From positions 77,810,001-77,874,000 of the forward strand of contig CM034546.1 in assembly GCA_020055645.1 (NCBI GenBank): 64,000 nucleotides of DNA, given 5' to 3'. Position numbers and translations under genes: made by a program. This stretch comes from Tomocerus qinae. Lineage: Eukaryota > Arthropoda > Collembola > Entomobryomorpha > Tomoceridae. Every line of letters starts with the position of its first letter. The stretch's first letter is position 1. The notes beneath the pieces were generated by a model, which was given only the letters and a program-made list of their open reading frames with translations, had not been told where the DNA came from and ran no database searches. Below, in pieces: positions 8,896 through 63,303 of this stretch.

Positions 8896-9159
8896 ATGCA
8901 TTTTATGAATTTTAAGGCTGTAGCAATGGTTGGAGTGGGGCATGTCGGATACTTGGCAAATACTACCCGACGAATTTGCGAGAATTCAAAAGCAGGATGG
9001 GAATCTTTGTACAATGAGGCTCCTCCGGAACTCAAGCCGGTGGCTTTGGTAGCTACCGTACCTGTAGATGCAGTTAGAAAAACAGCTAAAGCTACATCTG
9101 CAACCGTTAATTTTATTTCAGGAGCAGTAAGATCGGCTTTTGAATTTACTAAATTATAA
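8896..9159 (+). CDS. Small 87-residue hydrophobic/amphipathic protein, unrecognised
   Basis: This open frame starts MHFMNFKAVAMVGVGHVGYLA and contains alanine/valine-rich segments (KPVALVATVPVDAV, ATSATVNFISGAV). I do not recognise it. It follows the LRAT stop by about 80 bases, which could suggest a second LRAT exon, but a TGA immediately before the first ATG closes that frame. The inverted copy at 59665-59931 is open, with small in-frame length changes, and two broken fragments exist at 16426-16624 and 45920-46125. Conservation of the frame between arms, with in-frame indels only, supports a real protein. It may be membrane-active or structural; function unknown. Confidence 0.5.
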   Translation: MHFMNFKAVAMVGVGHVGYLANTTRRICENSKAGWESLYNEAPPELKPVALVATVPVDAVRKTAKATSATVNFISGAVRSAFEFTKL

Positions 9160-9925: not shown

Positions 9926-12900
9926 TTAGGAGTTGTAGACATCTGGTTTTCCTGCAAATTTTCCGTTGATGAAGTAGTTGTGTTCCAGACCTCCATTGAC
10001 GAGGATACATCTAAGTGGGCGGAATTCGACTCTGCTGGATTGGATGAAACTAGATTCCATGCAACGATTGAGCCAAATGTCCGCATCCGAGCTATGCTTG
10101 TATTCCCCGAGGATCCAATTGAAGACTTTATTGTCTTTCCTGCTCACCCTGTTGACACCAATGATACTGTTTTAAGTATGGTAGCTAGACTAGCCGAAGT
10201 ACAAGAGGGTCATCACTTATATTTATTCCCTATGCCAGCTTCACACATTTCAACTTCGTCAAGCCATAATAAAATTTACTGGGAGCTTGGGTAACTTCAA
10301 ACATTTGAAAATCATGCAACATTTTCTACAAATGAGTTACAACGTAGCAATAACATAATTGGTTATCCACCAGATATCTCTAAGAGGAATGACAAAGTCC
10401 TCAGTGTACATGGAGTAGAATCGGGAAGTGATGAGCGGGACTTTGGTCTCATAGATCGGCATGCAGAGTCCAAGGACCGTAGCGAACATTTTGTACTGCC
10501 AGTCGATGACCCAATTGAAGGAATATTCTCTCTCTGCTTGCTCTTGGTGATAGAATATTTCAGTTTCCTTGCTTTCACCATTCTTTTCCCGTTTCAAGAA
10601 CACCCACGCAGTATCCTAACACATTTATAAAATCCACAATTATTTCAACCTTATACTCTATAATACTCTATGGTAATATTCCATTTAGTTTTGAACGCAT
10701 GAAATAAAAATAACAGGGAAAGTGCTGTCAATTTACTTAAAACGATTTAAAAAAAATTACGCTAGTTGTGTCGGTATTTTTGAATAGCAGCATGTTTCTT
10801 GATTTATTTTTTATACAGTCATTAAGGGCCAGTCGGATGTGTTTCCAAAAGTCTCGTTCCGGGTGATTTTTTAAAGGCGCTGAAATGAAATCAGTCTGGC
10901 TCATTGAATATTGGGTCGAGCAGGTTGGGACAAGTAGATCCAACCAAATAATCTAATTGCAGACCGATTTAGAGGATAAAAGGAAAGTAAAAAAGAACGT
11001 ACTTCCAGCAACAGGAGCAGGCGTGGTGACGTCTTGCCTGTTGTTGAAGTATTTCGTGTCGGTGAGGTAATGTTTGAATACTCGGAAAACGTTTTTGATA
11101 AACTTTTTGGGGACTCTGAAACAAGCTGAAGAAAATACACTTTCGATGTCATCCAAGATTGCTGACTTCCAACGGTCGTGGTCCGTCCATGCCGGCTGTT
11201 TGTAGCCTAGAGACGATTGAAACAAATTGCAATCCTCCTCTGGTTCAACTTTCGTACATGTTTCTGCATAAATAGAAGTTCCGATCGATAAAAATAGATT
11301 TTAAGATCGCTTTTTATTAGAAGTTAGAGTGCATATCTTAACCTAAAAATAGAGGGGGAGGGATATTTATCAGGCCTCACGATATCATAACTCAGACTAG
11401 ACTGAGAGGCAGTACCGTATTTCGAAAATGAAACAAATACCCTAAAATGAAATAAAATCGCGCAAAGCGAGAATGTTTTTGGTATTTTGAGAAAAAACTC
11501 TTGTTTTTGGTTTTCGGAGGTGCATTTGTCCCCTATGCATCCCTCAATAAAGCTTGCTGAAAAAGGATATTTGTGGTCATACTTTCTAAACGGTAACAAC
11601 AGTCAGAAAGACGATACTAGCGTAGTCGATCAAATGTCAAATGAGCCTAGAATTAAATTAGTATCAAGATAGGACATCCTATTAAAAGATATTGTATTAA
11701 AAATAAAATTGTAAATTGAATTTATGTTATATCATTTGAATGGGATGTCCAGTCTTAATAATAAATTAAACTAGGTTTAATTATAATTAAGTAAAATTAA
11801 GTTGCTTATCAGACTACTTTTAATTGATGATGTTAGTATCATCTCTCAAGTTACCGTTGAGTAATTATCATGTAATTATGAATGACCACAGATATCCCTC
11901 TCAGTTTGATATCCCTTTCGGTCTACCACATATGTATGGATCATTAATTAGATATTCTTATCTGACAATTGGCTAGCTTTTATCTCTGTCTTATTCAATT
12001 TTTGGAAATTAGAAAAAAATAATATAAACTTTTATTTTTATATTACCAACCTTATTCTTTGAAGTATTCCTTTCAAATTATATAATAATATAATAACATA
12101 TTACCTATCCTGAATCGAATTTTTAAAACAATTTTCTTGTTTTATATTTTCAACAACCTTATCAAGGTTCTTGGGTTTTGAACTTTACGACATGCGACAT
12201 CCATAAAAATGACACAAAGAATTTCGAAAAGGTATTTATTAAGAATTAAATTATATCACCTGAGGCTTGAGGGAGTGGGGTACAATTTAGATCAGCGGTA
12301 TTGAAAATTTTATCCATCTCAATGACACCGGGTATCGGTCTATTCTTTCGTTTTGCCTTTGTTACACGGTCAAAAATGACTTTATGCGTTACTGGATGCA
12401 ATGGATATGCAAACGGATTTTCTCCTGTTTCTTCGATCAACACTTCCAATTCTGCGGCGACCGTCAGTGCTTCTTTTATTTTGTCGTAATATTCTTTCGT
12501 CTTCATTATTGCTGCTCTTCGAGCAGCAGGAAGATCACGGGCATAATTGTTATGTTGAGCAATTTCATATGCTATATTTCGTTGCAACTCTGAGTAGTGA
12601 TATGGCTCTTTTAGCAACAGCTGTCTATAACGTAATTCCTCTCTCCTTGTAACCCACATTCTATCTTGTTTATAATCATATACTTTACGTGTTTTTGACA
12701 AATCTTCATCTATTTGTTTGATTCGGTCTGTTTTCCCGGTTATGTCCGCGAAGATTCCCGTCGTCGATGCGAAAATATCTTTAATATGAGTCTGAATAGC
12801 AACCAGATTGTCCAATTTTGTCTTTTCTTTAATTATATTCTTCCGTTGATTTTTTAATTGACTTTTTCTACCAGGAAGCGTGGTAGGGTCATTTATTTCG

Positions 12901-15678: not shown

Positions 15679-16136
15679 AGTCTTTCTATTACAACTTTAC
15701 AACTTAAAATCAGCTTCGGAACTTTTAAACCTTTGTTATCATTTTCACATTGGTAAATATGGCTACTATAGGCTAAAAATAGGTCTAGTATAATCTAATA
15801 GAAAAATGAGTAGAATGAATGCCAATAGATATTTACTTGAGGGGTCAGTGACACTTTATTAGCCTACTTTGTTATAGCTAATACCTATGTTACAAAATTA
15901 CCATTCTTTATGCTTCAAACAATCACATTACAATGATAATATTATTTACATGACACGGTCTTATTAATTTGAACAAGGGTGTTAATTCTGACATAAAAAG
16001 AGTTATAATTCGTTTGCTTTATTGAAGATGTTGCAGGAAACGTATTATAATAATTCATTGCAAAAAATTCCGATGAATGATGGAGATGAAAATAATTCAG
16101 TCTACCAATTTATGGCAACTAGTCCTGAGACTGAAT

Positions 16137-16300
16137 CAGGCACGTATCCAGGAATTTGATAAAGAGAGGGCACACCAAAATATATTGGTAAAATTGTGAT
16201 AATTATTTTTGTATATTTAACCTTTTTTGACAAAACAATCGCCTTTTTCTGTGAATTTAGTGGGGGCGGGCTCCAGCTTCCCTTCTGGATACGTGTCTAG
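16137..16300. mobile_element. hAT-type MITE (left-arm copy)
   Basis: Ends CAGGCACGTATCC and GGATACGTGTCTAG are inverted repeats flanked by imperfect ACTGAAT/ACTGGAT. The same family is at 24894-25080 (perfect 8-bp duplication) and in the right arm near 46249-46410. Presence in both arms dates this insertion before the duplication. Confidence 0.55.
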
Positions 16301-16425
16301 ACTGGATACAGCGGGAACTAAAAGACCCATTCGCAGGAATTTCGCGAAAAATTTAACATTTTAATGAATATTATTCAGCCGTTTAAGTTCATTAACTTAT
16401 ATTTTACTGCTATTTAAGAATTTTA

Positions 16426-16624
16426 ATGGATTTTATGAATTTAAAGGTTGTAGCAATGGTTGGAGTAGGGAATATCGGATACTTGGCAAATACTATCCGT
16501 CGAATTTGTGAGACTTCTAAGGCAAGATCGATGGGAATCTTTGTACAATGAGGCTCCTCCGGCACTCAAGCCGATGGCTTTGGTAGATACCGTGTGCATA
16601 GTGCGTACCTGCTTTAGTCGCTTT
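16426..16624 (+). pseudogene. Fragment of the small 87-residue ORF
   Basis: The start MDFMNLKVVAMVGVGNIGYLA and on to RRICETSKA matches 8896-9159, then a four-base insertion (ATCG) breaks the frame. Sequence matching the parent continues to the GCGTACCTGCTTTAGTCGC stretch. The mirrored fragment is at 45920-46125. Confidence 0.65.
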
Positions 16625-16709
16625 TGATGCATGCAGATAATAATATATTTTATATAGTTCTCTATTTATAGTGTTTCAATGGGCTTAGTCTACTCACCGC
16701 GCACGCACC

Positions 16710-44468: not shown

Positions 44469-44898
44469 AAAGGGGATGGCACCAGTCTTATGGAGTTCAT
44501 GGACCGACAGATCTGAATAGGATTAATATATGTTGTAGCCCTATTTTTTCTGACCAAAAGTCATTATTGTCAAAATTCAATATGGGCTACCGTTTTCGAG
44601 ATATCTGTGGTCAAAAACTGCCTTTTTAACCTTAGGGGAGCAATCCGGCAGCCGAAACCCGCAGATTTATTACCTGCCAACCATAGTTATTATAACAATA
44701 ATCTGCGGGTTTCGGCTGCCGGATTGCTCCCCTAACGTTAAAAAGGCAGTTTTTGACCACAGATATCTCGAAAACGGTAGCCCATATTGAATTTTGACAA
44801 TAATGACTTTTGGTCAGAAAAAATAGGGCTACAACATATATTAATCCTATTCAGATCTGTCGGTCCATGAACTCCATAAGACTGGTGCCATCCCCTTT
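44469..44898. repeat. Near-perfect palindrome, about 199-bp arms
   Basis: 44469-44667 and 44700-44898 are almost exact reverse complements (starting AAAGGGGATGGCACCAG) with a 32-base loop. The structure would extrude as a cruciform and stop sequencing polymerases. It may be a foldback MITE, though no flanking duplication is clear. It lies 0.4 kb before the assembly gap. Confidence 0.75.
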
Positions 44899-45311: not shown

Positions 45312-45411
45312 NNNNNNNNNNNNNNNNNNNNNNNNNNNNNNNNNNNNNNNNNNNNNNNNNNNNNNNNNNNNNNNNNNNNNNNNNNNNNNNNNNNNNNNNN
45401 NNNNNNNNNNN
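45312..45411. other. Assembly gap, 100 N
   Basis: Exactly 100 N, the usual placeholder for a gap of unknown size. Distance, order and orientation of everything to its right rest on scaffolding. The right arm of the inverted duplication starts about 160 bp beyond it. Confidence 0.99.
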
Positions 45412-45845: not shown

Positions 45846-45919
45846 GCGGTGAGTAGACTAAGCACCATTGAAACACTCTAAATAGAGAACTATAAAATAT
45901 ATTATTAACTGCATGCATC

Positions 45920-46125
45920 GAAAGCGACTACAGCAGGTACGCACTACGCACACGGTATCTACCAAAGCCATCGGGGCTTGAGTGCCGGAGGAGCCTTATT
46001 GTACAAAGATTCCCATCGATCATGCCCATGCCTTAGAAGTCTCACAAATTCGACGGGTATTTTTCAAGTATCCGACATTCCTCACTCCAACCATTGTCAT
46101 ATAGCCTTAAAATCATAAAATACAT
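45920..46125 (-). pseudogene. Fragment of the small 87-residue ORF (right arm)
   Basis: Counterpart of 16426-16624, starting at the ATG at 46125. It contains further small indels (for example CTATATGACAATGG for GTAGCAATGG), so it has decayed independently since duplication. Confidence 0.55.
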
Positions 46126-46248
46126 TCAATTCTTCAATAGCTGTAAAATATAAGCAAATGAACTTAAACTGCTGAATAATATTCATTAAAATGTTAAATT
46201 TTTCTCGAAATTCCTGCGAATGGGTCTTTTAGTCCCCGATATCCAGTC

Positions 46249-46410
46249 TAGACACGTGTCCAGAAGGGAAGCTGGGGCCCGCCCCCACTAAATTCCCAGA
46301 AAAAGGCGATTTTTCCCATCAAAAAGATTAAATATACAAAAAAATTTATCATAATTTTACCAATATATTTTGGTGTGCCCCCTCTGATCAGATTCCTGGA
46401 TACTTGCCTG
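46249..46410. mobile_element. hAT-type MITE (right-arm copy)
   Basis: Ends TAGACACGTGTCCAG and GGATACTTGCCTG are inverted, and ATCCAGTC flanks the element at 46241-46248 and 46411-46418. It is orthologous to 16137-16300 in the left arm. Confidence 0.6.
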
Positions 46411-47748
46411 ATCCAGTCTCAGGAAAAGTATATAGTTGCCATAAATTGGTAGTCTGAATTATTTTCATCTCCATCATTCATCGGAATTTTTTGCAATGAA
46501 TTATTATAACAATGTTTCCTGCAACATCTTCAATACAGCAAACGAATTATAACTCTTTTTATTTCAGAATTAACACCCTTGTTCAAGTTAATAAGACCGT
46601 GTCATGTAAATAATATCATTATAATGTGATTGTTTGAAGCACATAAAGAATGGTAATTATGTAACATAAGTAGCTATAACAAAGTAGGCTAATTAAGTGT
46701 CACTGACCCCTTTAAGTAAATATCTATTGGCACTCATTCTTGCTCAATTGTTTTTTCTATTTGATACTAGACCTATTTTTAGCCTTTACTATATAGGCAT
46801 ATTTACCACAGTGTGAAAATAATAACAAAGGTTTAAAAGTTCCGAAGCTGATTTTAAGTTGAAGTTGTAATATAAGAAAACTATGAAAGTTCTTGTGTCG
46901 ATTTTTGTATTCAAAATACTATTTGAGGGATTGGGTGCAAGTCGACAGCCATACTCCGATGTTTGCGATGCAAACCCCCTGACTGAGGTATACAAACCCT
47001 ACGTAATGGCTTTCCAGGGTGGTCAAGGGGAAGGCAAATGGTATTTCCTGAAGACCCAAATTTTCTTCGTTTCTATAATGTTGGAACACTTGTCAACGTC
47101 TTCGTTTGCATCCACGGACCGTAAGGAAATATTTTTCTTTGATTTAATTATTAGAATATTCTTAATTGAAAAGCGGATTCATAGGGCATTCCTGTACTTC
47201 AGCAACACGACAACCCATGGTCTTGTTTACGAAACCCCCATGATGCAGGTATATGATCACAAATGTGAAATGTACAACGTTCCACCCGGAAGTGCAGCCA
47301 TGCACAACAAATCACATCGAGTGGTACTTTAATTTTATTTACATTAACAATAATATCAAATATCTACTCTACAGAAGTAAAAAGTTTGGCTTAGTCTTTC
47401 GGTTTTTTCATTAAATAAAAAAATGATGATAAAATTCTGCACATTCCGATCTGAAATAAAGCGCAGAAACAAACTTTGTGCTATTTTACTATGTTTAAGC
47501 ACTTTACTGCTTTTACTATATACTTTATCTATTTGTTTAAGATGGGTGATGATTTTGATACTAACTCGTTCTAACAAACGGGACTCAAGGAGAATTTCAA
47601 GTATTACAAATTTCCAAGTTAATTATTCATCATTTCAATGTGAAATGAATATTAAAGTAAAATATCGTGGCAGCTATTTTTCGTGTATATTAATTTGGGA
47701 ATGTTCTGATCACCAATAAGCTCATTCGGATTTTTGTACATGTGGTAA

Positions 47749-49318
47749 GTAGTAGTAGTAGTAAGTATTTATTGATCGTTTCTTATACACACAATCAAAC
47801 ATTTCATTACATCAAATTAAGTATGCCAATTAAGTATTAATAACTAACCTAGAAAATATTACCCATCTGGTCCACATAAATTCACAACCCTCGCATAAGT
47901 TCCACACAGTATTAGAACAATGCTTGGTCGTCCAACCAGCTACTCTCTCCATATAGTCCTACTCCTCTCCCACTATCACCCATGTCTATACAAAATAGAG
48001 ATTACTACCTCCCATAGACTAAAACATGTCCCTGTACAATAAGACTGCTAATGCTATTGAGATTTAGCTGCAACTTCCTTATTGGTTCCTACCCAAAGCC
48101 TCGGCCTTCTGCTTTAGGCCTTGTCCAACACACACACACAACACACTACACAGTTTAGATGGGGGAACAGTGGCGGTGTCCCACAGAACCGTCAGTCACC
48201 TTAACTAACAGCCTAAAATAGCCAATCACATGCATAAACTCTATTGTTTATTTGATTAGCACTTCTAACACTTCTGTGGGTCGCCTCTGATACGCAATTA
48301 ACCAACTGCAAGGCTCGTTTCCTGCTTCTAGTCTATATACTAGGTACTATAATATAATTCTGTGTTCCTACCCCATATCCGCAGATAAATCGCAGTACCC
48401 AGGGTAATACTAGGTATTAGCCATACAGTCCATACCACAAGTTAGAAGCAGGCATGCAGCCCGTGATTGGGTTTTATTCCCCAATAATGACCCCTGTCAA
48501 TAACTCTTACACCAACAGTAGCATTTGCTTCTGTATGTCCCCAAGTATTTGTAAAAAACGCACTATACCCAATACAGTAAAGTCCCTATGCAGAATAAGC
48601 AATAAATAATGTAGACATGATAATAATATTGTATAGATAGTTGTACTAAACCTTTTACAGATGTTACGCCTGCACTGTGCACTCGTGCACAAGCGGATTC
48701 CCAGAATTAGCTTTACGAGTATACAGAATGGTGATAATGTGCCAATTTCTATTTAGTAGTATAAACTGTGTCAGAGTGATTGGGCCTTACGTTGACGATG
48801 ATTATTAGTGTCACACTGCTTGATATCGGCTGGAGATTGGAACGTTAGCATAGAGTCAGGACAGTCAGGGCCAACACAGGAAAGACTAGTAAGAAAAGTC
48901 CTACTAATCTGGTGGAGACGTAGATACAGAGTAGTACACGCAGGTCTTGAGAAGGTCGTCTTATCTGCTGATCTGCATATCGCCAGAGCTTCGAACCGCT
49001 GCCAGACCCGATTAGCATCCATGGCCTCCCTCCCTCTACGTCCAAGAAATTCCTTTCACAGCACAGTAAATGTTGATTCAGCCGGGCTTCTGCACACACA
49101 AAACACCGATTTCGGGCATGTAGCCCCACTTTTGCGCACTGAATGTTGTCACAGTAGTAAGGACCCCTTCACCCTGAGCACAGCACTACTTTTTGGGTCG
49201 AAAAGAGCCTAAAATTAAGCCGAAAATTTCAAAAATACGCAGAGCATGACAAGAACATGACTGCTTGCTTAGACAGCTAATCTGGGAATTGTATATGGTC
49301 TTGTATAGGAATTGAATC
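47749..49318 (-). mobile_element. Retroelement-like insertion, 1570 bp, 14-bp target duplication
   Basis: TGTACATGTGGTAA occurs at 47735-47748 and 49319-49332, bracketing sequence absent from copy B. The left end, read on the minus strand, finishes AATAAATACTTACTACTACT, like the 3' tail of a non-LTR element. A long variable-length duplication fits target-primed reverse transcription. Open frames near 48771-49129 (minus) are Cys-rich but unrecognised, and no reverse transcriptase is visible, so this is a truncated LINE or a long SINE. Confidence 0.55.
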
Positions 49319-50336
49319 TGTACATGTGGTAAAAGGTGCAATGATCTTGTCTTAAATGATGAACACACGACCTTTTGCTTTACAGTTTTCTGTACAGTGC
49401 TAAAATTTCTGAACTATCACTGTAGGGAAATGAAAGAAGGTGCAAAAGTCGACCGTAGCCTAATAGTTAATTTTGTATATTATGGAATGGTCTTAGAACT
49501 CAAATTATATAATATTTTTGACGTTTTAAATAACTAATTAACAAAGTAAAATTTGCCCCTGTGATCAGCTACAGGCGATACAGCTGATGGGGAACCCAAA
49601 CGATTATTACCGCAAACCGTGGATGCAACTTTTCATGGCTCCTTATTGGGACCCTCGAGAAAAGTTGTATGTCAATGCCACATCATTGATTATTTTCGGA
49701 GAGGACCCTTGCATGTTTCACAAAGACTACCAAAAAATACTGGTTTTTCCTCCTGCTATTGCAACTGAAGGAGACTGTAAATTGGGATATAGCAATCTAA
49801 TGAAAGTAAACCCTACAACGGGGGAACTCGACGAATCAGGATATACCGAAGAGCAGAAAATAGAAAGAGAATATGCACGAGAAATTCTTATGAACAACCA
49901 CCCCATCCGAATAGAATCGAAACACTGTGGTGCTCACGGTATTTATTGGACCGAGAACAATTCTATTTATTTAAGTTTGAAAAGAGGCGAAAATGACCTC
50001 AACTTTCTATATACGAAGCACTTAGATTTTATGGTCGACCGAACGGCATCTCCTTTGGTGCTTAAAATAGCTCAAAAACAGACCGATATGGGAAATGCCC
50101 TCTCCAAAATGGATTCCGAAATAAATGACCCTGCCACGCTTCCTGGTAGAAAAAGTCGATTAAAAAATCAACGGAAGAATATAATTAAAGAAAAGACAAA
50201 ATTGGACAATCTGGTTGCAATTCAGACTCACATTAAAGATGTTTTCGCATCGACGACGGGGATCTTCGCGGACATAACCGGGAAAACAGACCGAATCAAG
50301 CAAACACAGGAAGATATATCAAAAACACGTAAAGTA

Positions 50337-51814
50337 TCACTACTATTAGATAAACGGCAAAAGTCAGTCACGTGACAATTCCGTTTGTATGTTTGTACTT
50401 CTGTGTGTTGATTTGACGTAATTCTAAAACGCAGCCAAGCACATATTAACACACATAATGAGGCAAATTCCAACACGTCCAAAGCAGCACAATTGCTGGC
50501 ACTACACAATTATGCACTGCGCAGTCTATAGTCTCCTACGACTTATAAGGCACAAAAAAATTCATAACAGGAACAATGCATGCATTCTGTATGAAAATGT
50601 TTCCGTGCACTCAAGATTGCTATTACTTCATGTGCGGGAAAATTCAATTTGGCCATTTACATTGATGTTTTGAATTTTGAATTGGTTTAATAAAAGTTAG
50701 ATTCCCAAAAAAGTGAGTCAAATTTCGATTCTGTAAAGCAAATTTTCCACCGTTTAAGGTTGCTCATCACGCCTGCATAGCAACCGCATGGGCCTATCTA
50801 AATGCGTGTTAAAAAGTGCTTTACACCAAGAAAGCTTGGCTCCTTCCTCCCGAAGATTACGGCCGATTTTTATGAGACTTACATTTTTGGAATCCTGGAC
50901 TATCGGGGAACACAGGAGGGCGAATGGACTTTTGATATTATTGCTTTAAATGGTGCAAAAAAATCAACATTGTATAAAAACTAAAACTGATTCACGTTTT
51001 TTGGAATTCGATTTTTTTTAAAGCATTTAAAGCAATAATATCAAAAGTCCATCCGCCCTCCTGTGTTCCCCGATAGTCCAGGATTCCAAAAATGTAAGTC
51101 TCATAAAAATCGGCCGTAATCTTCGGGAGGAATAAAGCTTGGTTTAAAGCATTTTTTAGCACGCATTTAGATAGGCCCATGCGGTTGCTATGCAGGCGTG
51201 ATGAGCAACCTTAAGGCAGTGGTGCAGATTTCAAAAGACTGTTTTTGCCACAAATAGGGACGCTGCTGCTAGGTAACCAGCAAAAATTATCATAGAGGGT
51301 AAATGGGAATCGCGAAAATTCGTACTATTTTTGGGAAAGTCCTAAAGGATCTGAGATTACTGGTCCTACACCCACGTAGTAAGTGTAAAAAAGATTCTTC
51401 AAAACTTATTCTAGAGGTTTTACTTTGAAAACTTCCCATTTTTATCTCTGGCTTGAAGATATCATCGTTTGAAACTTGAAATTGATACATATTTCTGTAT
51501 TTGTATTTTGTGATCCGTTTCTTCCAATCAAAGACAAAATTGTGAAATTTTTAAAATATACCCTCTAGAATAAGTTCCGATGAATCTTTATTGAATTTAC
51601 TTTATGGGTGTTGGATCAGTAATCTCGGATCCTTTAGCACTTTTTCAAAAAAAGTTAATGAGGAATAGTCAAGAGAGCATTTACGTTTGTATGCACCAGG
51701 ACTTTAAGCTCCCGATACCTCAGATTTGGACATCTCAGATGATCATCAAAATACATGTAAAAATTGATTTACAACTCTTGGAATTCTGTCTAAAGTTCTT
51801 AGCCGATTTTCTTG
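50337..51814 (+). mobile_element. Helitron-like insertion in exon 3 of copy C
   Basis: Relative to copy B, the insert sits exactly between A (50336) and T (51815) with no duplication. The exon pieces sum to 1185 nt, which equals 1192 minus the 3-bp and 4-bp losses seen elsewhere. It starts TCACTACTATTAGATAAACG, close to the TCTCTACTA-type start of animal Helitrons. The 3' end reads TTTTCTTG rather than CTRR and lacks an obvious terminal hairpin, so the call is tentative. Two internal inverted repeats (50755-51214, and roughly 51.3-51.7 kb) look like nested elements. No Rep/helicase gene. Confidence 0.45.
50755..51214. repeat. Palindrome inside the Helitron-like insertion
   Basis: 50755-50952 and 51024-51214 are near-perfect reverse complements (TAAGGTTGCTCATCACGCCT outward) around a loop of about 70 bases. 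The open frames they contain (50802-50984 plus; 50992-51180 minus) are mirror images and not genes. Confidence 0.7.
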
Positions 51815-53980
51815 TATGATTATAAACAGGATAGAATGTGGGTTACAAAGAAAGAAGAATTACGTTATAGACAGCTATTGCTAAAAGAGCCATATCACTA
51901 CTCTGAGTTACAACGAAAAATAGCAAATGAAATTGGTGACCATGACATGCCCGTGATCTCCCTGCTGCCCGAACAGCAGCAATAACTAAGACGAAAGAAT
52001 ATTACGACAAAATAAAAGAAGCACTGACGGTCGCCGCAGAATTTAGAGTGTTGTTCGAAGAAACGGGGGAAAATCCTTTTGCATATCCATTGCATCCAGT
52101 AACGCATAAAGTCATTTTTGACCGCGTTACAAAGGCAAAGCGAAAGAATAGACCGATACCCGGTGTCATTGAGATGGATAAAATTTTCAATACCGCCGAT
52201 CTAAATTGTACCCCACTCCCTCAAGCCTCAGGTAATATAATTTAATTCTTAATAAATTGTATCAATAAGGTATCTTCAATATAGTCAGAGAAATACCTTT
52301 TCGAAATTCTTTGTGTCATTTTTATGGATGTCGCATGTCGTGAAGTTCAAAACCCAAGAACCTTGATAATGTTGTTGAAAATATAAAACAAGAAAATTGT
52401 TTTAAAAAGTCGATTCAGGATAGGTAATATTTTATTATATTATTATATAATTTGAAAGGAATATTTCAAAGAATAAGGTTGGTAATATAAAAGTTTATAT
52501 TATTTTTTTTCAAATTTCCAAAAATTAAATAAGACAGAGATAAAAGCTAGCCAATTGTCAGATAAGAATAAATATCTGTGTTCATTCATAATTACATGAT
52601 AATTACTAAACGGTAACTTGAGAGATGATACTAACATCATCAATTAAAAGTAGTCTGGTAAGCAACTTAATTTAATTTAATTATAATTAAACCTAGTTTA
52701 ATTAATTATTAAGATTGGACATCCCATTCAAATGATATAACATAAACTCACTTTACAATTTTATTTTTAATACAATATCTTTTAATAGGATGTCCTATCT
52801 TAATACTAATTTAATTGTAGGCTCATTTGACATTTGATCGACTACGCTAGTATCGTCTTTCTGACCGTTGTTACCGTTTAGAAAGTATGACCACAGATAT
52901 CCTTTTCAGCAAGCTTTATTGAGGGATGCATAGGGGACAAATGCACCTCCGAAAACCAAAAAAAAAGAGTTTTTTCTCAAAATACCAAAAACATTCGCGC
53001 TTTGCGCGATTTTATTTCATTTTAGGGTATTTTTGTTTCATTTTCGAAATACGGTACTGCCTCTCAGCCTAGTCTGAGCTATGATATCCCTGTGAGGCCT
53101 CATAAATATCCCCCCCACTCTATTCTTGCTACATTTTAGGTTAAGATATGCACTCTAACTTATAATAAAAAGAGATCTTAAAATCTATTTTTATCGATCG
53201 GAACTTCTATTTATGCAGACACATGTACGAAAGGGGTACTAGAAATTAGCTTACGCCGAATAGAAAATAGCACACGCCGAAGTGGAAAATAGCCGAAGCC
53301 GAAGTAAAATTTTAGCCCACGCCGAATAGAAGTTAGCCTACACCGAAGCATCTGCGCCGAAGCCGAAGGAAAATAGCCGAAGCCGAAGTGGAAATTAGCA
53401 TAGCATAAGTTGGTTGAAATTGGCCGACGCCGAATGGAAAATTGTCGACGCCAAAGCAAAAGTTAGAAATTGTCGGCGCCGAAGTAAAACTAGACCTGCC
53501 GACGCCGAATAGAACACAGCCGATGCCGAAGTGGAAAATAGCCGAAGCCGAAGTGGAATTTAGCCGAAGCCGAATAGAAATTAGCCGACGCCGACGTGGA
53601 AATTAGCCGAAACCGACGTGGAAAATAACCGAAGCCTAAGTGGAAATTAGCATACGCCGATGCCGAAGGATAATTTGCCGAAGTTGTGGTGTAAATGTCA
53701 TCGCCGAAGCCGAGTAGAAGACAGCCGACGCCGAAGTGGAAAATAGCCGAAGCCGAAGTGGAATTTAGCCGAAGCCGAATAGAAATTAGCCGACGCCGAC
53801 GTGGAAATTGGCCGAAGCCGAAGTGGAAAATAGCCGAAGCCGAAGTGGAAATCAGCCGAAGCCGAAATAATATATCTATGTTCCTACAAAATCATATGTA
53901 ATGTCGGTATTTATGATGTCAGGATGGTATTTTTGCATCTATATATGCATGTAGTATGTATGTATGCATAGATGTATGTA

Positions 53981-54163
53981 CAGGGTTGCGCAAAAATAAC
54001 TGGGCCATAAGGATTATACATAGCAGTGTGCAAAAATACATTAGAATACAATCCAGAATTGCCATGGTTTCTGGTACCAGAATCTAAGTTGTATTGCTTA
54101 CTGACAATGCATAATCCCCTATGGCCCAGTTCTGTTATGCCCAGTTATTTTTGCGCAACCCTG
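53981..54163. mobile_element. Tc1/mariner-type MITE in left foldback arm, 183 bp
   Basis: CAGGGTTGCGCAAAAATAAC and its complement form the ends, flanked by TA. Its mirror copy is at 56526-56708. The interior is non-coding; the open frame across it is the same in both copies because the copies are identical or nearly so. Confidence 0.75.
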
Positions 54164-54978
54164 TATGTAATATGTATGTATGCATGGATGTATATATGTA
54201 GTATGTATGTATGCGTGGATGTATATATGTAATATGTATGTATGCATGGATGTATACATAAAGTATGTATGTATGCGTGGATGTATATATGTAATATGTA
54301 TGTATGCATGGATGTATACATAAAGTATGTATGTATGCATGGATGTATACATAAAGTATGTATGTATGCATGGATGTAGTATGTATGTATTCATGGATGT
54401 ATACATAAAGTATGTATGTATGCATGGATGTAGTATGTATGTATGCATGGATGTAGTATGTATGTATGCATGGATGTAGTATGTATGTATGCATGAATGT
54501 AGTATGTATGTATGCAAGGATGTATACATAAAGTATGTATGTATGCATGGATGTAGTCTATTATTATGTAACCAAATATACTACAACTTAAGATAACATA
54601 ATCTTTTCAATAACACCAATAACAAATTTCACCATTAAAATTGTTGACACTTACTGTTACTTAAAGAATGTTAATTTTTGTCATTCTTCTAATAAATTGA
54701 TTGCTGATAACGTTTAGAAAAAAACCAAAAAACTTTATTTAACATTACACTATTATGGATATCATATACATTCATTTTAGACCACTATATTAACTGGAGT
54801 TAGTAATCTAAAATTGAATGTCACAACTATATCTACACACAAACTACATATACATGTACCTACTACATACATACATACAAACACACATACTCTATATATA
54901 CATCCATGCAAACATGCATACTACATACATCTAACCATGCATAAATACATATTACATGTACACATGCATGCATACATA

Positions 54979-55809
54979 CAGTGTGTCCCAAAATGAATGA
55001 CTCACACTTTGACCCTAAATAACTTCCAAACGGTTTAACATATTCAAACGAAATAAACACCATTCGAAAGACCAAGCGAAAACTTAGAAATGAAGAACTA
55101 TCAATAATAACAAAAAACTAGAACTAGGTAAAAAGTTGCTTGGACGAAAAAAGGTGAATTCGTACTTTCGTAAATGACTTAATGCCAATTTGATCTCTAA
55201 TAACATTTAAATTATTAGGTTTAGGAAAAAGAGAATAGCGGAGATGAAAAGAGCGTGCGATTTTGAGTAAAATCCAAAGGTTTTTAAATGTAAAAGTAAA
55301 AACACAATATTTTGGAATGTGACCTGCAAAAAAGAGTAAAAATCAATTAGGACTTTTTGCAAAGACAGATTAAAATTCGATTTTGTAAGAAAAGCCATCA
55401 GGGCAGTTGGGAGTCGTTTTTGGATGGTTTTTCGAGTTCTTAGATCTTATTGCACGTGATTCAATACGAATCTAAAATAATGAATAATCGTAGAACTTAA
55501 AATTAACCTCGCCGTGCTATGAACTGCTGCATGCTAGACTTGGTTTTGACTCTAGGATACTGTCTCGGGATTGTTAGGCCATTCTCTTTTGATGGACCTT
55601 GAAACATTAAATTATGTAGGGGTGACCGATCCGGGATGCAACCAAATCGGAAAAACCATCCAAAACTCATTTCATGCCAACTCCATCAGTTAGCTCATTT
55701 CTAAGTTTTCGCTTGGTCTTTCGAATGGTGTTTATTTCGTTTGAATATGTTAAACCGTTTGGAAGTTATTTAGGGTTAAAGTGTGAGTCATTCATTTTGG
55801 GACACGCTG
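54979..55809. mobile_element. Tc1/mariner-type TIR element in the foldback loop, 831 bp
   Basis: CAGTGTGTCCCAAAATGAAT and the complement of CAGCGTGTCCCAAAATGAAT begin inverted ends of about 115 bp, flanked by TA. The interior, about 600 bp, has no transposase frame. It lies at the centre of the foldback element, inserted in the CATACATA repeat. Confidence 0.7.
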
Positions 55810-56525
55810 TACATACTAAATGTATACATCCATGTATACATACATATTACATATATACATCCATGCATACATACATACTACATCCATGCATAAGTACATA
55901 TTACATATATACATCCATGCATACATACATATTATATGTATACATCCATGCATACATACATATTATATTTATACATCCATGCACACATACATACTTTATG
56001 TATACATCCATGCATACATACATACTTCATCTATGCATACATACATACTTTATGTATACATCCATGCATACATACATACTTTATGTATACATCCATGCAT
56101 ACATACATACTTTATGTATACATCCATGCATACATACATACTTCATCTATGCATACATACATACTTCATCCATGCATACATACATACTTTATGTATACAT
56201 CCATGCATACATACATACTTCATCCATGCATACATACATACTACATCCATGCATACATACATACTTTATGTATACATCCATGAATACATACATACTACAT
56301 CCATGCATACATACATACTTTATGTATACATCCATGCATACATACATACTTCATCTATGCATACATACATACTTCATCCATGCATACATACATACTTTAT
56401 GTATACATCCATGCATACATACATACTTTATGTATACATCCATGCATACATACATATTACATATATACATCCACGCATACATACATACTACATATATACA
56501 TCCATGCATACATACATATTACATA

Positions 56526-56708
56526 CAGGGTTGCGCAAAAATAACTGGGCATAACAGAACTGGGCCATAGGGGATTATGCATTGTCAGTAAGCAATACAA
56601 CTTAGATTCTGGTACCAGAAACCATGGCAATTCTGGATTGTATTCTAATGTATTTTTGCACACTGCTATGTATAATCCTTATGGCCCAGTTATTTTTGCG
56701 CAACCCTG
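56526..56708. mobile_element. Tc1/mariner-type MITE in right foldback arm, 183 bp
   Basis: Reverse complement of 53981-54163, with the same length, same ends and same flanking spacer, at the mirrored position of the opposite arm. Confidence 0.75.
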
Positions 56709-58265
56709 TACATACATCTATGCATACATACATACTACATGCATATATAGATGCAAAAATACCATCCTGACATCATAAATACCGACATTACATATGATTT
56801 TGTAGGAACATAGATATATTATTTCGGCTTCGGCTGATTTCCACTTCGGCTTCGGCTATTTTCCACTTCGGCTTCGGCTGTGTTCTATTCGGCTTCGGCG
56901 ATGACATTTACACCACAACTTCGGCAAATTATCCTTCGGCATCGGCGTATGCTAATTTCCACTTAGGCTTCGGTTATTTTCCACGTCGGTTTCGGCTAAT
57001 TTCCACGTCGGCGTCGGCTAATTTCTATTCGGCTTAGGCTAAATTCCACTTCGGCTTCGGCTATTTTCCACTTCGGCATCGGCTGTGTTCTATTCGGCGT
57101 CGGCAGGTCTAGTTTTACTTCGGCGCCGACAATTTCTAACTTTTGCTTTGGCGTCGGCAATTTTCCATTCGGCGTCGGCCAATTTCAACCAACTTATGCT
57201 ATGCTAATTTCCACTTCGGCTTCGGCTATTTTCCTTCGGCTTCGGCGCAGATGCTTCGGTGTAGGCTAACTTCTATTCGGCGTGGGCTAAAATTTTACTT
57301 CGGCTTCGGCTATTTTCCACTTCGGCGTGTGCTATTTTCTATTCGGCGTAAGCTAATTTCTAGTACCCGTACGAAAGTTGAACCAGAAGAGGATTGCAAT
57401 TTGTTTCAATCGTCTCTAGGCTACAAACAGCCGGCATGGACGGACCACGACCGTTGGAAGTCAGCAATCTTGGATGACATTGAAAGCGTATTCTCTTCAG
57501 CTTGTTTCAGAGTCCCCATAAAGTTTATCAAAAACGTTTTCCGAGTATTCAAACATTACCTCACCAATACGAAATACTTCAACAATAGGCAAGACGTCAC
57601 CACGCCTGCTCCTGTTGCTGGAAGTACGTTCTGTTATTACTTTCCTTTTATCCTCTAAATCGGTCTGCAATTAGATTATTTGGTTGGATCTACTTGTCCC
57701 AACCTGCTCGACCCAATATTTTAAGAGCCAGATTGATTTCATTTCAGCGCCTTTAAAAAATCACCCCGAACGAGACTTTTGGAAACACATCCGACTGGCC
57801 CTTAATGACTGCATAAAAAATAAGTCAAGAAACATGCTGCTATTCAAAAATACCGACACAACTAGCGTAATTTTTTTAAATCGTTTTAAGTAAATTCACT
57901 TTCACTGTTACTTTATAAATGTGTTAGGATACTGCCTGGGTGTTCTTGAAACGGGACAAGAATGGTGAAAGCGAGGAAACTGAAATATTCTATCACCAAG
58001 AGCAAGCAGAGAGAGAGCATTCCTTCAATTGGGTAATCGACTGGCAGTACAAAATGTTCGCTACGGTCCTTGGACTCTGCATGCCGATCTACGAGACCAA
58101 AGTCCCGCTCATCACTTCCCGATTCTATTCCATGTACACTGAGGATTTTGTCATTCCTCTCAGAGATATCTGGTAGGTAACCAATTATGTTATTGCTACG
58201 TTTTAACTCATTTGTAGAAAATGTTGCATGATTTTCAAATGTTTGAAGTTGCCCAAGTTCCCTGT

Positions 58266-58486
58266 AAATTTTATCATAAGCTCCCAGTAAATTTTATTAT
58301 ACGCTCCCAGTAAATTTTATTATAAGCTCCCAGTAAATTTTATTATAAGCTCCCAGTAAATTTTATTATAAGTTCCCAGTAAATTTTATTATAAGCTCCC
58401 AGTAAATTTTATTATAAGCTCCCAGTAAATTTTATTATAAGCTCCCAGTAAATTTTATTATAAGCTCCCAGTAAATTTTATTATGG
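58266..58486 (+). repeat. 23-bp minisatellite in intron 6 of copy C
   Basis: About nine units of GCTCCCAGTAAATTTTATTA plus TAA, with a diverged tenth at the left edge. The left arm has a single unit (complement near 10274-10296), so the array expanded after duplication. Confidence 0.85.
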
Positions 58487-59664
58487 CTTGATGAAGTTGA
58501 AATGTGTGAAGCTGGCATAGGGAATAAATATAAGTGAAGTGATTATCCTCTAGTACTTCGTTAAGTCTAGCTACCATACTTAAAACAGTATCATTGGTGT
58601 CAACAGGGTAAACAGGAAAGACAATAAAATCTTCAATTGGATCCTCGGGGAATACAAGCATAGCTCGGACGCCGACATTTGGCTCAATCGGTGCATGGAA
58701 TCTAGTTTCATCCAATCCGGTAGAGTCGAATTCCGCCCACTTAGATGCATCCTCGTCAATGGAGGTCTGGAACACAACTACTTCATCAATGGAAAGTTTG
58801 CAGGAAAACCAGATGTCTACAACTCCTAATAAATTTCAAGGTCATTGCAATTCAAGAAGGTCAACATCAGATAATTAAATAAATTTAACAGAATAATAAG
58901 TTTGTAGTCGATATAGAAGCATACAACGGTATTGTACGTCGGGATCTTCTTCGAAGCCATCAACCCTTTTTACTTCAGAAATCAGAACAAAATTGAACGG
59001 TGGTATTTTTGATTAATGAATATTTTACCAGTTTTCAGGCATCAAACGTTTTTCACTATAAAAGCATTTCGTTTCTGTCGATTAAAATCATCAATGTTGA
59101 AACATTAATGCAGACACACTAAATATTATATATGCACTAAATATACACTAAATAAATATAAATAAATAAATAAATATATTTACCTATATAATATATTATA
59201 TTCATTTACTAATATATACTAATAAACTTATGTAGTTGCACTAATTGGATTTATTTTTAAAAAATGGAAACAAATAAAAGTGTGGAGTTAACTTTTTAAA
59301 ATACGTTTTTGATGACAAAATTATTTAAAAACTGTAAATGCAAAAAACAAAGATCGCCAATGAACATTTTATAATAGCAACCAGGCTGTTTTATCCGGAT
59401 TTTTTACAGCAACGTTGTTAATAGGACGGAATTTCAGAAAGTGGGCAGAACAAGATTCGATTAACCTATAATGCAATAACAAAATTGCCAAAAATGTTCG
59501 ATGCCTGAGTAAATAAGGTAAATTTTTAATGTTTATAAGTACTTCGCAACATTGTTTAAATTTATTAGCATCAGACATGTTATTAAAGCTACAACTTACA
59601 ACTGAATTGAATTAACTTTTGTGAATTACAGCCTTGTTTGTTTAAATGTAGTTTCTTTATCTTA

Positions 59665-59931
59665 CTAAAAATCAAAAACCGATCTTACTGCTCCTGAAAT
59701 AAAATTAACGGTTGCAGATGTAGCTTTAGCTGTAATTCTAACTGCATCTACAGCGACTACAGCAGGTACGGTAGCTACCAAAGCCACCGGTTTGAGTACC
59801 GGAGGAGCCTCATTGTACAAAGATTCCCATCCTGCCTTTGAAGTCTCGCAAATTCGTCGGGTAGTATTTGCCAAGTATCCGACATGCCCCACTCCAACCA
59901 TTGCTACAGCCTTAAAATTTATAAAATGCAT
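59665..59931 (-). CDS. Small 88-residue protein, right-arm copy
   Basis: Paralogue of 8896-9159. It starts MHFINFKAVAMVGVGHVGYLA and is open to ...AVRSVFDF. Relative to the left copy it has a few extra residues (VPAVVAVDAV for VPVDAV), in frame. As on the left, a TGA directly precedes the first ATG. Function unknown. Retention of the frame while the neighbouring copy C and the chemoreceptor have broken suggests selection or recent duplication. Confidence 0.5.
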   Translation of the reverse strand: MHFINFKAVAMVGVGHVGYLANTTRRICETSKAGWESLYNEAPPVLKPVALVATVPAVVAVDAVRITAKATSATVNFISGAVRSVFDF

Positions 59932-59989
59932 TCAAATTCTGCAATAGCTGTAAAATATAAGTGAATGGACTTAAACTGATAAATAAAAT

Positions 59990-60472
59990 TTAATTTAAAG
60001 GAATTATGTAGTTATATAATACTTGAGCTTGTGCACTCCATCCGGATTTATGATTGTATTTCCAATATGTAGCATAACCTTCACAATTATTGTCGCTAAT
60101 GAGATCGTATTTGACTTTCATTGTCTTCCCAACTACCAATTCACCGTTTTCGTCTGTAAGACCAGCGAAAGCTTTGTCAATGCACTCCTTTCTCGGCCTC
60201 GGTTTAACTCCGAGAAGGTCAGCAGTGTATATTCCGTTATTTACACGAACTAGGTCTCCTTTGGCAATTTTAATGAGATATTCGGCTGATTTAGTTCCAT
60301 AAGACTTGTCGTTATCATTTTTATCCGGTCCTAGAACGTGCACACACAACCCGTCAGAAATATATAAGGCGAAATGTGAATAAGTTGTTCGATTAAATTC
60401 CACAATGTCCAACTCGTCTATGATCTTCAAAAGATCTGAAGCTCGTTGGTATTCAGTTTTTGGTTTCGGCAT
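59990..60472 (-). CDS. LRAT-domain acyltransferase-like protein, right-arm copy, 160 residues
   Basis: Paralogue of 8356-8814 with the same catalytic set: H33 in YSHFALYISDG, H45 in CVHVLGPDK and C130 in DNNCEGYATY. Replacements include KKDNDK to KNDNDK, AALLRV to ADLLGV and LKVGKTI to LVVGKTM. After SAQAQVL it reads on with YNYIIPLN before stopping, because of base changes at the left copy's stop. The promoter side up to the chemoreceptor is conserved with the left arm, so both may be expressed. Substrate unknown. Confidence 0.72.
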   Translation of the reverse strand: MPKPKTEYQRASDLLKIIDELDIVEFNRTTYSHFALYISDGLCVHVLGPDKNDNDKSYGTKSAEYLIKIAKGDLVRVNNGIYTADLLGVKPRPRKECIDKAFAGLTDENGELVVGKTMKVKYDLISDNNCEGYATYWKYNHKSGWSAQAQVLYNYIIPLN

Positions 60473-61683
60473 CTTCCGAAGAGGATAACCAATTAGAACC
60501 TACAATAATCTAAAAGCAGGTGTTTTATAAACCGACTGAAATTCGTGTTTTATTAAAGATTTATACAGTTCAAGGTGTGAGTGCGTACATATATCGTATT
60601 TGTAAAATGGCAGATTTAAACAGCTGAAATTAAATGATCAACTGATCAACCAAAAGGCGCTCAACAGCTTAGGTGTTGCAAAATTAGACGCATACCGTGG
60701 AAAAGATACTTGAAGATGGGCTGGTAAAATAATAAGATTAGTGGGAAATCTATATAGTTAGCAACCTAGCACGTAGACATGCATAAATGCAAGCGGAATT
60801 CCAAGGTCTGCTTCTTTTTTATTTATAGAACATTTAGCTTTTGTATTGCTCTTTATCGAAAATGAAATGAAGCAGGCACAAACCTGTTACGCACAGCAAA
60901 TAATTATGCTTCTACTTGTGTGTCTTCACAAAGTAATAATAAATTACTAAAGCACTAAACGTAGTCAGCTTCGCAAATATTTTCGGTTAAATACATTTTA
61001 GCTTTAACCAGCTTAAGGAAAAGTAATAAAACTGGCCTATATGGATTGCCATTTTGCCAACGCTCTGCGTCCGTTCGTCTGCTGTCTATTAAAAAATTAC
61101 ATACCAAACTCTGATTTTACAATATGTTGGTTTGGATAACCATGTTCATATATATCACCCTTAAATATAATAATGCCCAGTATTTTATATTTTAAAAGAT
61201 GTTATAAGGTCAAAATTTCTAAAAATCCGTTTCACATAGTTTTAAGATACTCACTTACACAGACAGACATTTAATACATTATCAACGGCAATGGTCAATT
61301 AATACAATATCATAATGCGTAAATATGTATAATTATTACACAGTAATTATAAGTACTTTAGCCTACATGGTTAGACATGCAGACATTTTGACATGATAAG
61401 AACGAAATATTTGTTTGTTGTCGACCTGCAAAAGTAGTCTTGTAAGTGTCTTGTAATAGCGACAGATTTGGTTAATGACTTCAGTAATTGATTTCCTTGA
61501 TGACTAATGATGACCACCAAATATATGCGATATGCGACTCGAGGCGTAATTTGAAGCGGAAACCAAAATAATAGCAAGGTAATAAATGTCTGTACATATC
61601 AATTTGTTTTAATCAAAGTGTTCTATGCTCTCGGATGTTGTTCACTGACATTCCCCCATTCATTTAAAATCCATTCTGTTAAA

Positions 61684-62486
61684 TTACTTAATGATACATA
61701 GACGAGCTGTCCACAGAAGGATTGCGGCAAGGACCTTAATTACTGTCAGTCGTCTGAATGGGTAGAATGAGCCCACATCAACTTTCATAGGTATGCAGGA
61801 TCGATACATTGCCTCTGCCAGTTTTTTGCTATCGTTAACGAATAAACAGTGTTTCTGGAATCTTTTGGAGAGTTCAAATATTTTACCTGTCATGTTACAA
61901 AACAGAATCAGGTATCCAAGAAACAAAATGGAAGCCAATATGAGAATGGCATAATTCCATAACTCAGTGGTGGGGTCTTTATGTAAAGAGACAACTGCGT
62001 AATTGCTCGTTACAATAGTGAAAACTAGAGTAAACTTGTGAAGTGGCATAAAAATATGTGTATGGCATTCAGTGTATCTACTATGAAGAACTTGAAGGTG
62101 TCGGTAGGATTTCACAAATTCTGTTTTGTCACACCTCTTTATTTTGGTTCTACACATTAAACAATCATTAAATTTTAATTATATCAGTATCCTTTTCTTA
62201 CATCACTTTCGAAATTCGACATAAATTGTGGTTTTATTTTTCAAATGATATTAGTATATAGGTTTGACATTATTGACATACCCACCTGAGTATTTGTAGA
62301 TATGAAACCGAATAGAACAGATAGCTTATATGAAAGATGACATTCCAGAAAAACCAAACTCCATTCCATCCTGCCACAATAGTTTCGAATATAGCAAAAA
62401 TTATGAAAAGAATAATGCTTCTACTTGGAAGTAGTAAAGAATACATGTAGTGACTTCCATTGCTAAATTTAATAAAAATTGCCACC
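61684..62486 (-). pseudogene. Chemoreceptor copy truncated by the Polinton boundary
   Basis: Exon 3 (62149-61684) is open and nearly identical to 6660-7125. Exon 2 is present only as 62286-62486, exactly the 201 nt that correspond to 6337-6537. The upstream part of exon 2 and exon 1 are replaced by unrelated sequence from 62487. If the Polinton inserted into an existing gene, the missing part should lie beyond its other end, right of the window. In its present state it lacks the first membrane segments. Confidence 0.75.
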
Positions 62487-62817: not shown

Positions 62818-63300
62818 TTATTGTGAAGAAAGCAGAAGATATCTATTACAAAAATCTGTAGCATATATTTCTATTTCTTTAAGATTGGAATTGAAAATAT
62901 TCATAATATTGTTAAAACCGTTTTTTCCAAAGCTTCTGTATGTTAAGAATAAGAAACACAATTGACCGCAAATATTTGAAGATTCTTGTTGTGTAATAAA
63001 GGTCACACTAGTTTTCAATAATCCAGGTGGTTTGTCGACAGAATAATAATCTAAAGGTTTTGCAAACGAATCGTAGTATTCGTATATTCCTGGTTCTGGT
63101 AAATAGAATGCAATCCAATGTTTTCCAGGTTCATGGCGCTTATCTGTATTCATTACAATCGAAATTGGGAATAGATTGGGCGAAAAATCTATGTTATTTA
63201 ATTCATCTGCTGCGATAACATAGAAAGATTTCGCTTTGATTGGTACATTAATCTTTCGATATAAAGTGTCAAGCAAAGACAGTATTTTCTCCCCGTCCAT
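62818..63300 (-). CDS. Adenain-type cysteine protease of Polinton (PRO)
   Basis: A 160-residue frame with the Ulp1/adenain catalytic order: His in GKHWIAFYL (H61), Asp in YYDSF (D77), Gln in FITQQES (Q104/105) and Cys in NICGQLCFLFL (C111). Adenovirus and Polinton proteases use this His-Asp/Glu-Gln-Cys arrangement and are thought to process capsid proteins. It is slightly shorter than adenain (about 200). The start ATG is three bases downstream of the stop of the capsid-type gene in transcription order, so the two are probably one block. The frame is intact and all catalytic residues are present. Confidence 0.8.
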   Translation of the reverse strand: MDGEKILSLLDTLYRKINVPIKAKSFYVIAADELNNIDFSPNLFPISIVMNTDKRHEPGKHWIAFYLPEPGIYEYYDSFAKPLDYYSVDKPPGLLKTSVTFITQQESSNICGQLCFLFLTYRSFGKNGFNNIMNIFNSNLKEIEIYATDFCNRYLLLSSQ

Positions 63301-63303
63301 TTT

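What the first reader, a model, noticed from the sequence alone, without database searches (positions are those of the whole stretch)
53234..57368. Foldback (FB)-like transposon caught with its empty site in the paralogous exon
Seen: exact complementary ends, 9-bp duplication GTACGAAAG, tandem-repeat arms, and an empty orthologous site in copy B (11249-11257). 15 nt plus 246 nt of flanking exon equals 261 nt, the intact exon length, so the insertion is base-exact. Known: Drosophila FB elements have repeat-built long inverted arms and 9-bp duplications. This looks like a non-Drosophila FB-type family with a new repeat composition (GCCGAAGCCGAAGTGG and CATACATACATCCATG) and no coding capacity.
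Basis: partly seen in the sequence, partly recalled or inferred. Interest (0 to 1): 0.82.

Follow-up and report, generated by a model that had tools for sequence, protein, structure and literature searches.

The report
Foldback transposon family with self-copying arms
A 4.1-kb hairpin-shaped jumping element sits inside one copy of a duplicated animal gene; relatives in the same genome show that it is a real mobile family whose two arms copy each other, and one relative encloses a large block of satellite DNA.

Summary
Confirmed. A 4,135-bp element (53234-57368) with near-identical, repeat-built inverted arms and the 9-bp duplication GTACGAAAG interrupts an exon that is uninterrupted in two paralogues in the window. 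The host genome (334 Mb, arthropod-like) holds 109 matches (up to 3 mismatches) to its 25-bp terminus; reversed-pattern control 0. Of 35 pairs examined, 27 have exact 9- or 10-bp duplications, 4 have 9 bp with one mismatch, 4 none; mismatched flanks gave 0 exact of 1,190. So it is a real non-autonomous foldback family, not an assembly palindrome. Its transposase was not found; Mutator-like (MULE) is the likeliest source.

Arms of one element are mostly far more alike than arms of different elements, and foreign inserts are mirrored in both arms in three subfamilies. (2) Five copies carry a 146-bp satellite as one inverted array, from about one unit to about 445; the largest copy is 63 kb and keeps its 9-bp duplication. 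Whether arrays grew or shrank is not settled. Foldback MULEs and a foldback-linked satellite are known (Tm1, Muta1, Tetris): a new member of a known kind with unusually clear evidence on arm upkeep.

The parts
53225..53233 (+). left target-site duplication GTACGAAAG
   Evidence: single copy in paralogue B at 11249-11257 (-)
57369..57377 (+). right target-site duplication GTACGAAAG
53234..57368 (.). complete foldback element, 4,135 bp, no coding capacity seen
   Evidence: 109 related termini in the genome
53234..53866 (+). left outer arm: terminus GGGTACTAGAAAT, then ~22-bp tandem repeats (TAGCCGAAGCCGAAGTGGAAAT type)
56823..57368 (-). right outer arm, same structure; lacks an 87-bp repeat block present on the left
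53867..53980 (+). left arm spacer, 114 bp, identical to the right-arm copy; found whole or in part in the 13 other complete copies under 9 kb that were fetched
56709..56822 (-). right arm spacer
53981..54163 (+). nested 183-bp MITE-like element in the left arm (inverted ends CAGGGTTGCGCAAAAATAACTGGGC, TA duplication)
56526..56708 (-). the same nested element mirrored in the right arm, 183 of 183 identical
54164..54570 (+). left inner arm, ~31-bp tandem repeats
55811..56525 (-). right inner arm, ~31-bp tandem repeats
54571..54860 (.). central unique segment (also in the copy at C1:124.77 Mb, 86-90% identical)
54979..55810 (.). second nested inverted-repeat element in the loop (ends CAGTGTGTCCC / GGGACACGCTG, TA duplication), not mirrored
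   Evidence: ends read directly
53219..53233 (+). first 15 nt of the interrupted exon of gene copy A
57378..57622 (+). remaining 245 nt of the interrupted exon
11249..11257 (-). empty site in inverted paralogous copy B

Best explanation
The element is one copy of a non-autonomous foldback DNA transposon family. A transposase supplied in trans, most likely Mutator-like, recognises the GGGTACTAGAAAT terminus and perhaps the repeats behind it, and inserts the element with a 9- (sometimes 10-) bp target duplication. The two arms of each element overwrite each other by local copying (gene conversion or hairpin-templated repair), so an insertion in one arm can be mirrored into the other and lengthen both. 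SHOWN: mobile family, duplications, empty site, arms more alike within than between elements, mirrored foreign inserts. INFERRED: which transposase, and which molecular route copies the arms.
For: Family: 109 termini, control 0; 24 exact 9-bp, 3 exact 10-bp and 4 one-mismatch duplications among 35 pairs, against 0 exact (one 10-mer with a mismatch) in 1,190 wrong pairings. Arms, outer 267 bp of 16 elements: left-right differences sum to 10, against a mean of 94 and minimum of 50 in 10,000 random re-pairings. Mirrored foreign DNA: the 183-bp MITE here, 0 of 183 different; a 744-bp insert found at 98-100% at 10 places, the two arms of 5 elements, all 21 candidates scored, with left-right differences of 0, 6 and 2 of 744 in the three elements aligned against 8-11 between them; a fragment of another MULE family in both arms of C1:13.23 Mb, 1 of 626 different between arms but 31-34 of 617-624 from the three genomic copies aligned. 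MULE: duplication length and repeat-built arms fit the descriptions in PMC5225508, PMC3169594 and PMC6446971 (passages); the genome holds 59 PF10551 matches, open frames up to 489 aa.
Against: No transposase found: none of 59 PF10551 and none of 19 PF12762 (Merlin-type) matches lies in a paired span, so the superfamily is open; Merlin, recalled as giving 8-9-bp duplications, is present in the genome. By my count, 21 of 32 arms are strictly nearest to their own partner, 6 tie and 5 are nearer to another element, both arms of the 63-kb copy among them. Over the outer 500 bp (15 elements) the 63-kb copy's arms differ at 31 of 500, C1:29.05 at 9 of 456 with 88 gap columns, the window copy at 5 of 500 (partly alignment across a repeat indel). 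Assembly polishing could make arms look too alike.
Confidence: 0.85

Rival explanations
1. Assembly artefact: a hairpin or inverted read misjoined into the gene.
For: Near-perfect palindromes are a classic artefact (general knowledge); the window has a 100-N gap at 45312-45411.
Against: Duplication plus two uninterrupted paralogues; 27 of 35 pairs with their own exact duplications.
Confidence: 0.01
2. Same mobile family, but mobilised by another superfamily with 9-bp duplications (Merlin, P-like or unknown).
For: No MULE transposase with these ends found; Merlin-type domains exist in this genome (19 matches).
Against: The 27 exact duplications are 9 or 10 bp, none 8; repeat-built arms with 8-10-bp duplications are described for MULEs in a nematode and a mosquito. 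No Merlin-type match within 600 kb of a paired span.
Confidence: 0.2
3. Arms are alike because each new copy is rebuilt as a fresh hairpin during transposition or replication (template switch), not because of continuing conversion.
For: Explains low within-element divergence, the palindrome at C1:13.23 Mb (99.0% self-complementary end to end) and mirrored inserts equally well.
Against: In the 744-bp-insert subfamily the mirrored insert is shared by five elements, yet arms differ less within than between the three aligned; rebuilding would have to recur in each lineage. Not excluded.
Confidence: 0.3
4. Precise excision from copy B rather than insertion into copy A.
For: A MULE can excise precisely (Muta1 in yeast, PMC5225508 passage).
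Against: The more diverged paralogue C is also uninterrupted.
Confidence: 0.05

Closest known systems
Tm1, Mutator/Foldback family of root-knot nematodes (PMC3169594, passages seen)
   Same: composite repeat-built inverted arms, mostly 9-bp (8-10) duplications, non-coding members, nested elements inside
   Different: Tm1 has transposase-bearing members, asymmetric 7-bp end motifs and ~14-bp repeats, arms on average 93% identical; here no transposase found, symmetric ends, ~22- and ~31-bp repeats
Muta1 and other Aedes aegypti MULEs (PMC5225508, passages seen)
   Same: short terminal motif followed by subterminal tandem repeats, 8-9-bp duplications, many non-autonomous derivatives; Muta1 is called a type 2 Foldback element
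   Different: 145-bp arms and a 504-aa transposase there; here arms of hundreds to thousands of bp and no transposase
Tetris of Drosophila virilis (PMC4079207, passages and section 10 seen)
   Same: non-coding foldback, 8-10-bp duplications, tandem repeats in the arms, link to satellite arrays
   Different: its satellite derives from the arm's own 220-bp repeats; here a 146-bp satellite lies next to a 744-bp insert in one subfamily, and arrays of the same unit exist without listed family termini
Drosophila FB and FB-flanked giant transposing elements (recalled; the giant ones in a passage of PMC6431247)
   Same: long repeat-built inverted arms, 9-bp duplications (recalled)
   Different: no sequence comparison made; the 63-kb copy here has family termini only at its two ends, so it is not a segment between two complete copies
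Rehavkus (PMC6446971, passages seen)
   Same: 9-bp duplications, a minisatellite beside one end, insect and annelid hosts
   Different: has a transposase with a PHD finger and 26-400-bp arms; no sequence test made

Membership tests
Foldback (structural class of DNA transposons) | long inverted arms built of tandem repeats | tested here: met
Foldback (structural class of DNA transposons) | target-site duplication of near-constant length | tested here: met
   27 of 35 pairs exact 9 or 10 bp, 4 with one mismatch, 4 without
Foldback (structural class of DNA transposons) | dispersed copies with the same ends and variable middle | tested here: met
   109 termini; 35 paired spans of 351 bp to 63,180 bp; interiors differ
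Mutator-like superfamily (MULE) | 8-11-bp duplication | tested here: met
   range from a PMC6446971 passage
Mutator-like superfamily (MULE) | MULE transposase in an element with the same termini | tested here: not met
   none of 59 PF10551 matches in the 35 paired spans. 25 ORFs from family copies were scanned with Pfam without a transposase over its cut-off. Interiors of 14 of 35 pairs were not fetched and of 5 only in part; a diverged transposase could be missed. Not filed as a proven MULE
Drosophila FB family proper | sequence homology of arms to FB | not tested
Rehavkus | transposase with PHD finger | not tested
   no transposase-coding copy found to test

The most novel reading that the evidence does not exclude
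Foldback elements act as palindrome machines: arm-to-arm copying turns an insertion in one arm into longer arms, and in one subfamily this has taken up a satellite that now forms a ~59-kb inverted array inside a single unit with intact ends and a 9-bp duplication, so that satellite DNA can be spread as the cargo of a hairpin transposon.
Probability: 0.3. Interest if true: 0.75.

Novelty: new member of a known kind. Interest (0 to 1): 0.5.

Why it matters
How foldback arms stay identical and become long is mostly inferred from structure. Here one genome holds many copies, with foreign inserts as internal markers that are best explained by copying from arm to arm. Five elements of one subfamily carry between about one and about 445 units of the same satellite, a natural series for studying how transposons and satellites exchange sequence. 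The window copy is an example of such an element interrupting a gene copy.

Tried and rejected
Transposase: PF10551 over the genome gave 59 matches, none in the 35 paired spans; the 15 MULE loci held (about 1.5 kb each side) have no family terminus (12-mer, one mismatch allowed) and no GCCGAAG. An ORF in copy C1:13.23 Mb that I took for a transposase N-terminus belongs to a different MULE family nested in both arms. That protein fragment also has a weak match inside the paired copy C2:39.56 Mb (E 5.5e-4), whose interior was not fetched. PF12762 (Merlin type): 19 matches, none in a paired span.

Arm divergence against element length: Spearman 0.33, p 0.23; no distance effect claimed.

'Satellite born in the element': I first read the copy-number series as growth. 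speaks against a simple version. Units within the 63-kb array agree at 95.7-96.2%, about as much as units of different elements, while the adjoining 744-bp insert differs by only 8-11 of 744 between three elements. This suggests that array diversity is older than these copies; some shorter arrays are more uniform (97-99% within an arm of C1:71.05 and C5:18.89). Growth and loss cannot be told apart. Arrays of the same unit lie without listed family termini at C3:17.55, C1:118.83, C5:19.47, C1:99.36, C5:9.51, C1:57.25 and C3:51.22-51.34 Mb (38 of 120 candidates scored, list cut).

Viral contigs: the 16-bp terminus had 2 matches; the one looked at shows no such repeats, probably chance; two other patterns had none. 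Rfam: no match at gathering score. No tRNA found.

Host: only 'arthropod-like', from EcKL, LRAT, ITFG1 and P450 genes; a springtail was a guess and one paper search did not settle it.

Full report
What is there. Positions 53234-57368 hold a 4,135-bp element with inverted arms. The outer arm starts with GGGTACTAGAAAT and runs into degenerate ~22-bp repeats; then a 114-bp spacer, a 183-bp MITE-like element with TA duplication, and ~31-bp TATG-type repeats; the middle holds a ~290-bp unique segment and a second nested inverted-repeat element of 832 bp. The first 211 bp are exactly complementary to the last 211. Outer arms match at 539 of 546 aligned positions with one 87-bp indel; the next 410 bp match at 410 of 410; further in, the 31-bp repeats match at 371 of 384 with three indels. 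The flanking gene copies A and B differ at 3.0-3.6% of positions.

Insertion. GTACGAAAG lies directly on both sides. In paralogue B (inverted, 11249-11257) and paralogue C the exon is uninterrupted. Insertion into A is the simplest reading because the more diverged C also lacks the element.

It is a family. The genome holding the window (334,443,149 bases, 115 contigs; window at C1:77810001-77874000) gave 164 matches to the first 267 bp, 41 of the listed ones full-length by my count (40 of 136 candidates scored). A 25-base terminus pattern with up to 3 mismatches gave 56 forward and 53 reverse places; the reversed pattern gave 0 and 0. From the 100 places listed I paired convergent neighbours by hand: 35 pairs including the window; 30 listed termini stayed unpaired. 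Flanks (scored): 24 exact 9-bp duplications, 3 exact 10-bp, 4 with one mismatch in 9, 4 none. Pairing each left flank with another element's right flank gave 0 exact in 1,190 (one 10-mer with a mismatch). The 24 nine-base duplications are A+T-rich without a strong consensus (A or G at position 3 in 21 of 24). Spans run from 351 bp to 63,180 bp.

No transposase. Fetched were 15 whole copies besides the window (13 under 9 kb, the 13.5-kb and the 63-kb one) and five more without 800 bp at each end; the interiors of 14 of 35 pairs were not fetched. The ORFs seen are minisatellite frames, short frames without a Pfam family over its cut-off, and LINE-type ORFs in two copies, with reverse-transcriptase domains (C1:55.47 and C1:137.25 Mb). 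PF10551 found 59 MULE matches in the genome and PF12762 19 Merlin-type ones; none lies in any of the 35 spans. MULE remains the best guess from duplication length and arm structure, at about 0.75.

Arms copy each other. In 16 elements the left and right outer 267 bp differ by a median of 0 (maximum 4, the 63-kb copy); arms of different elements by a median of 6 (range 0-14). The sum over true pairs is 10; random re-pairing gives a mean of 94 and never below 50 in 10,000. By my count, 21 of 32 arms are strictly nearest to their own partner, 6 tie, and 5 are nearer to another element. Over the outer 500 bp (15 elements) seven show 0 differences, seven 1-9, and the 63-kb copy 31 of 500. If arms had only diverged since the family began, within-element differences should be at least as large as between-element ones.

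Foreign inserts as markers. (a) The 183-bp MITE is in both arms here, 0 of 183 different; in the related copy C1:124.77 Mb it is whole or nearly so in the left arm, while the right arm matches the left only up to bp 742, which is 18 bp into it, so a mirrored insert can also be lost. (b) A 744-bp insert was found at 98-100% at 10 places: both arms of five elements (C1:86.23, C1:71.05, C1:59.03, C5:18.89, C4:11.51 Mb); all 21 candidates were scored and the other 11 are partial at 70-87%. In the three elements aligned, arms differ at 0, 6 and 2 of 744; between elements 8-11. (c) Copy C1:13.23 Mb, 99.0% self-complementary end to end, has a fragment of another MULE family in both arms: 1 of 626 different between arms, 31-34 of 617-624 (with 20-45 gap columns) against three genomic copies. 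Independent insertions at mirrored sites are a poor explanation; one arm was copied from the other. The route (gene conversion, hairpin-templated repair, rebuilding at transposition) is not resolved. The loop element in the window is not mirrored, as expected for something outside the arms.

Satellite cargo. The five elements with the 744-bp insert also carry a 146-bp tandem unit (with 38-bp spacings in the largest), + in the left half and - in the right, with a single switch. Unit matches +/-: about 1/0.35 (3.7 kb), 6/7 (5.4 kb), 13/7 (8.7 kb), 11/19 (7.7 kb), about 95/350 (63 kb). All five have exact 9-bp duplications. The 63-kb copy has family termini only at its two ends and a 100-N gap inside. 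Direction of change is not established, and the same unit forms arrays elsewhere without listed termini.

Known relatives. Foldback MULEs with about 9-bp duplications and repeat-built arms are known from a nematode (Tm1, PMC3169594, passages) and a mosquito (Muta1, PMC5225508, passages); Tetris of Drosophila virilis (PMC4079207, passages and section 10) already links a foldback to a satellite, and a review counts it among satellites grown from internal arrays (PMC12628747, passages); arthropod MULE arms of 13-1,193 bp are surveyed in PMC13359780 (abstract and results section). The kind is known; this family, its mirrored foreign inserts and its 63-kb member are what is added.

Caveats. Arm identity could be raised by assembly polishing, though elements about 99% alike keep their differences. 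Superfamily is inferred. Host unnamed. Counts are from one assembly.

Noticed in passing
window 50337-51814: A 1,478-bp insertion in another exon of gene copy A, running TC...CTTG between A and T with no duplication, with the empty site in copy B: Helitron-like (hallmarks recalled). It contains palindromes at 50754-51214 and 51324-51655.
   Followed up: partly
window 44469-44898: A 430-bp near-perfect palindrome (outer 162 bp perfect), MITE- or foldback-like; no relation to the main element seen.
   Followed up: no
window 1-4212, 10515-16700, 45846-57912: Three copies of an unknown gene region; A and B belong to an inverted duplication (6337-16700 against 45846-62486, 88-96% identical in the blocks found) whose spacer has a 100-N gap at 45312-45411, so a flipped haplotype cannot be excluded.
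   Followed up: partly
genome C1 against C2-C5: 81 of 100 listed family termini lie on C1, which is 140.5 of 334.4 Mb; C2 (71.8 Mb) has 2. Chromosome bias, reason unknown.
   Followed up: no
genome C3:51217209-51335865: Matches to the 146-bp satellite spread over about 118 kb, all listed ones on the minus strand, about 0.2 Mb from the end of C3; and inverted arrays in the opposite order (- then +) at C1:118.83, C3:17.55 and C5:19.47 Mb without listed family termini.
   Followed up: partly
loci L039, L041, L045, L046: Inverted repeats of 122-155 bp around PF10551 matches, i.e. other MULE families; in L046 they are 100% identical and the open frame is 430 aa, so possibly recently active.
   Followed up: no
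genome C1:55467892-55481389: Convergent family termini with arms identical over 1,104 bp but no target duplication, with LINE-type ORFs between them; may be a recombinant.
   Followed up: no
window 62818-63303 (-): A 161-aa ORF that reminded me of adenain-type cysteine proteases of Maverick elements (recalled); no Pfam match at E 0.001.
   Followed up: no
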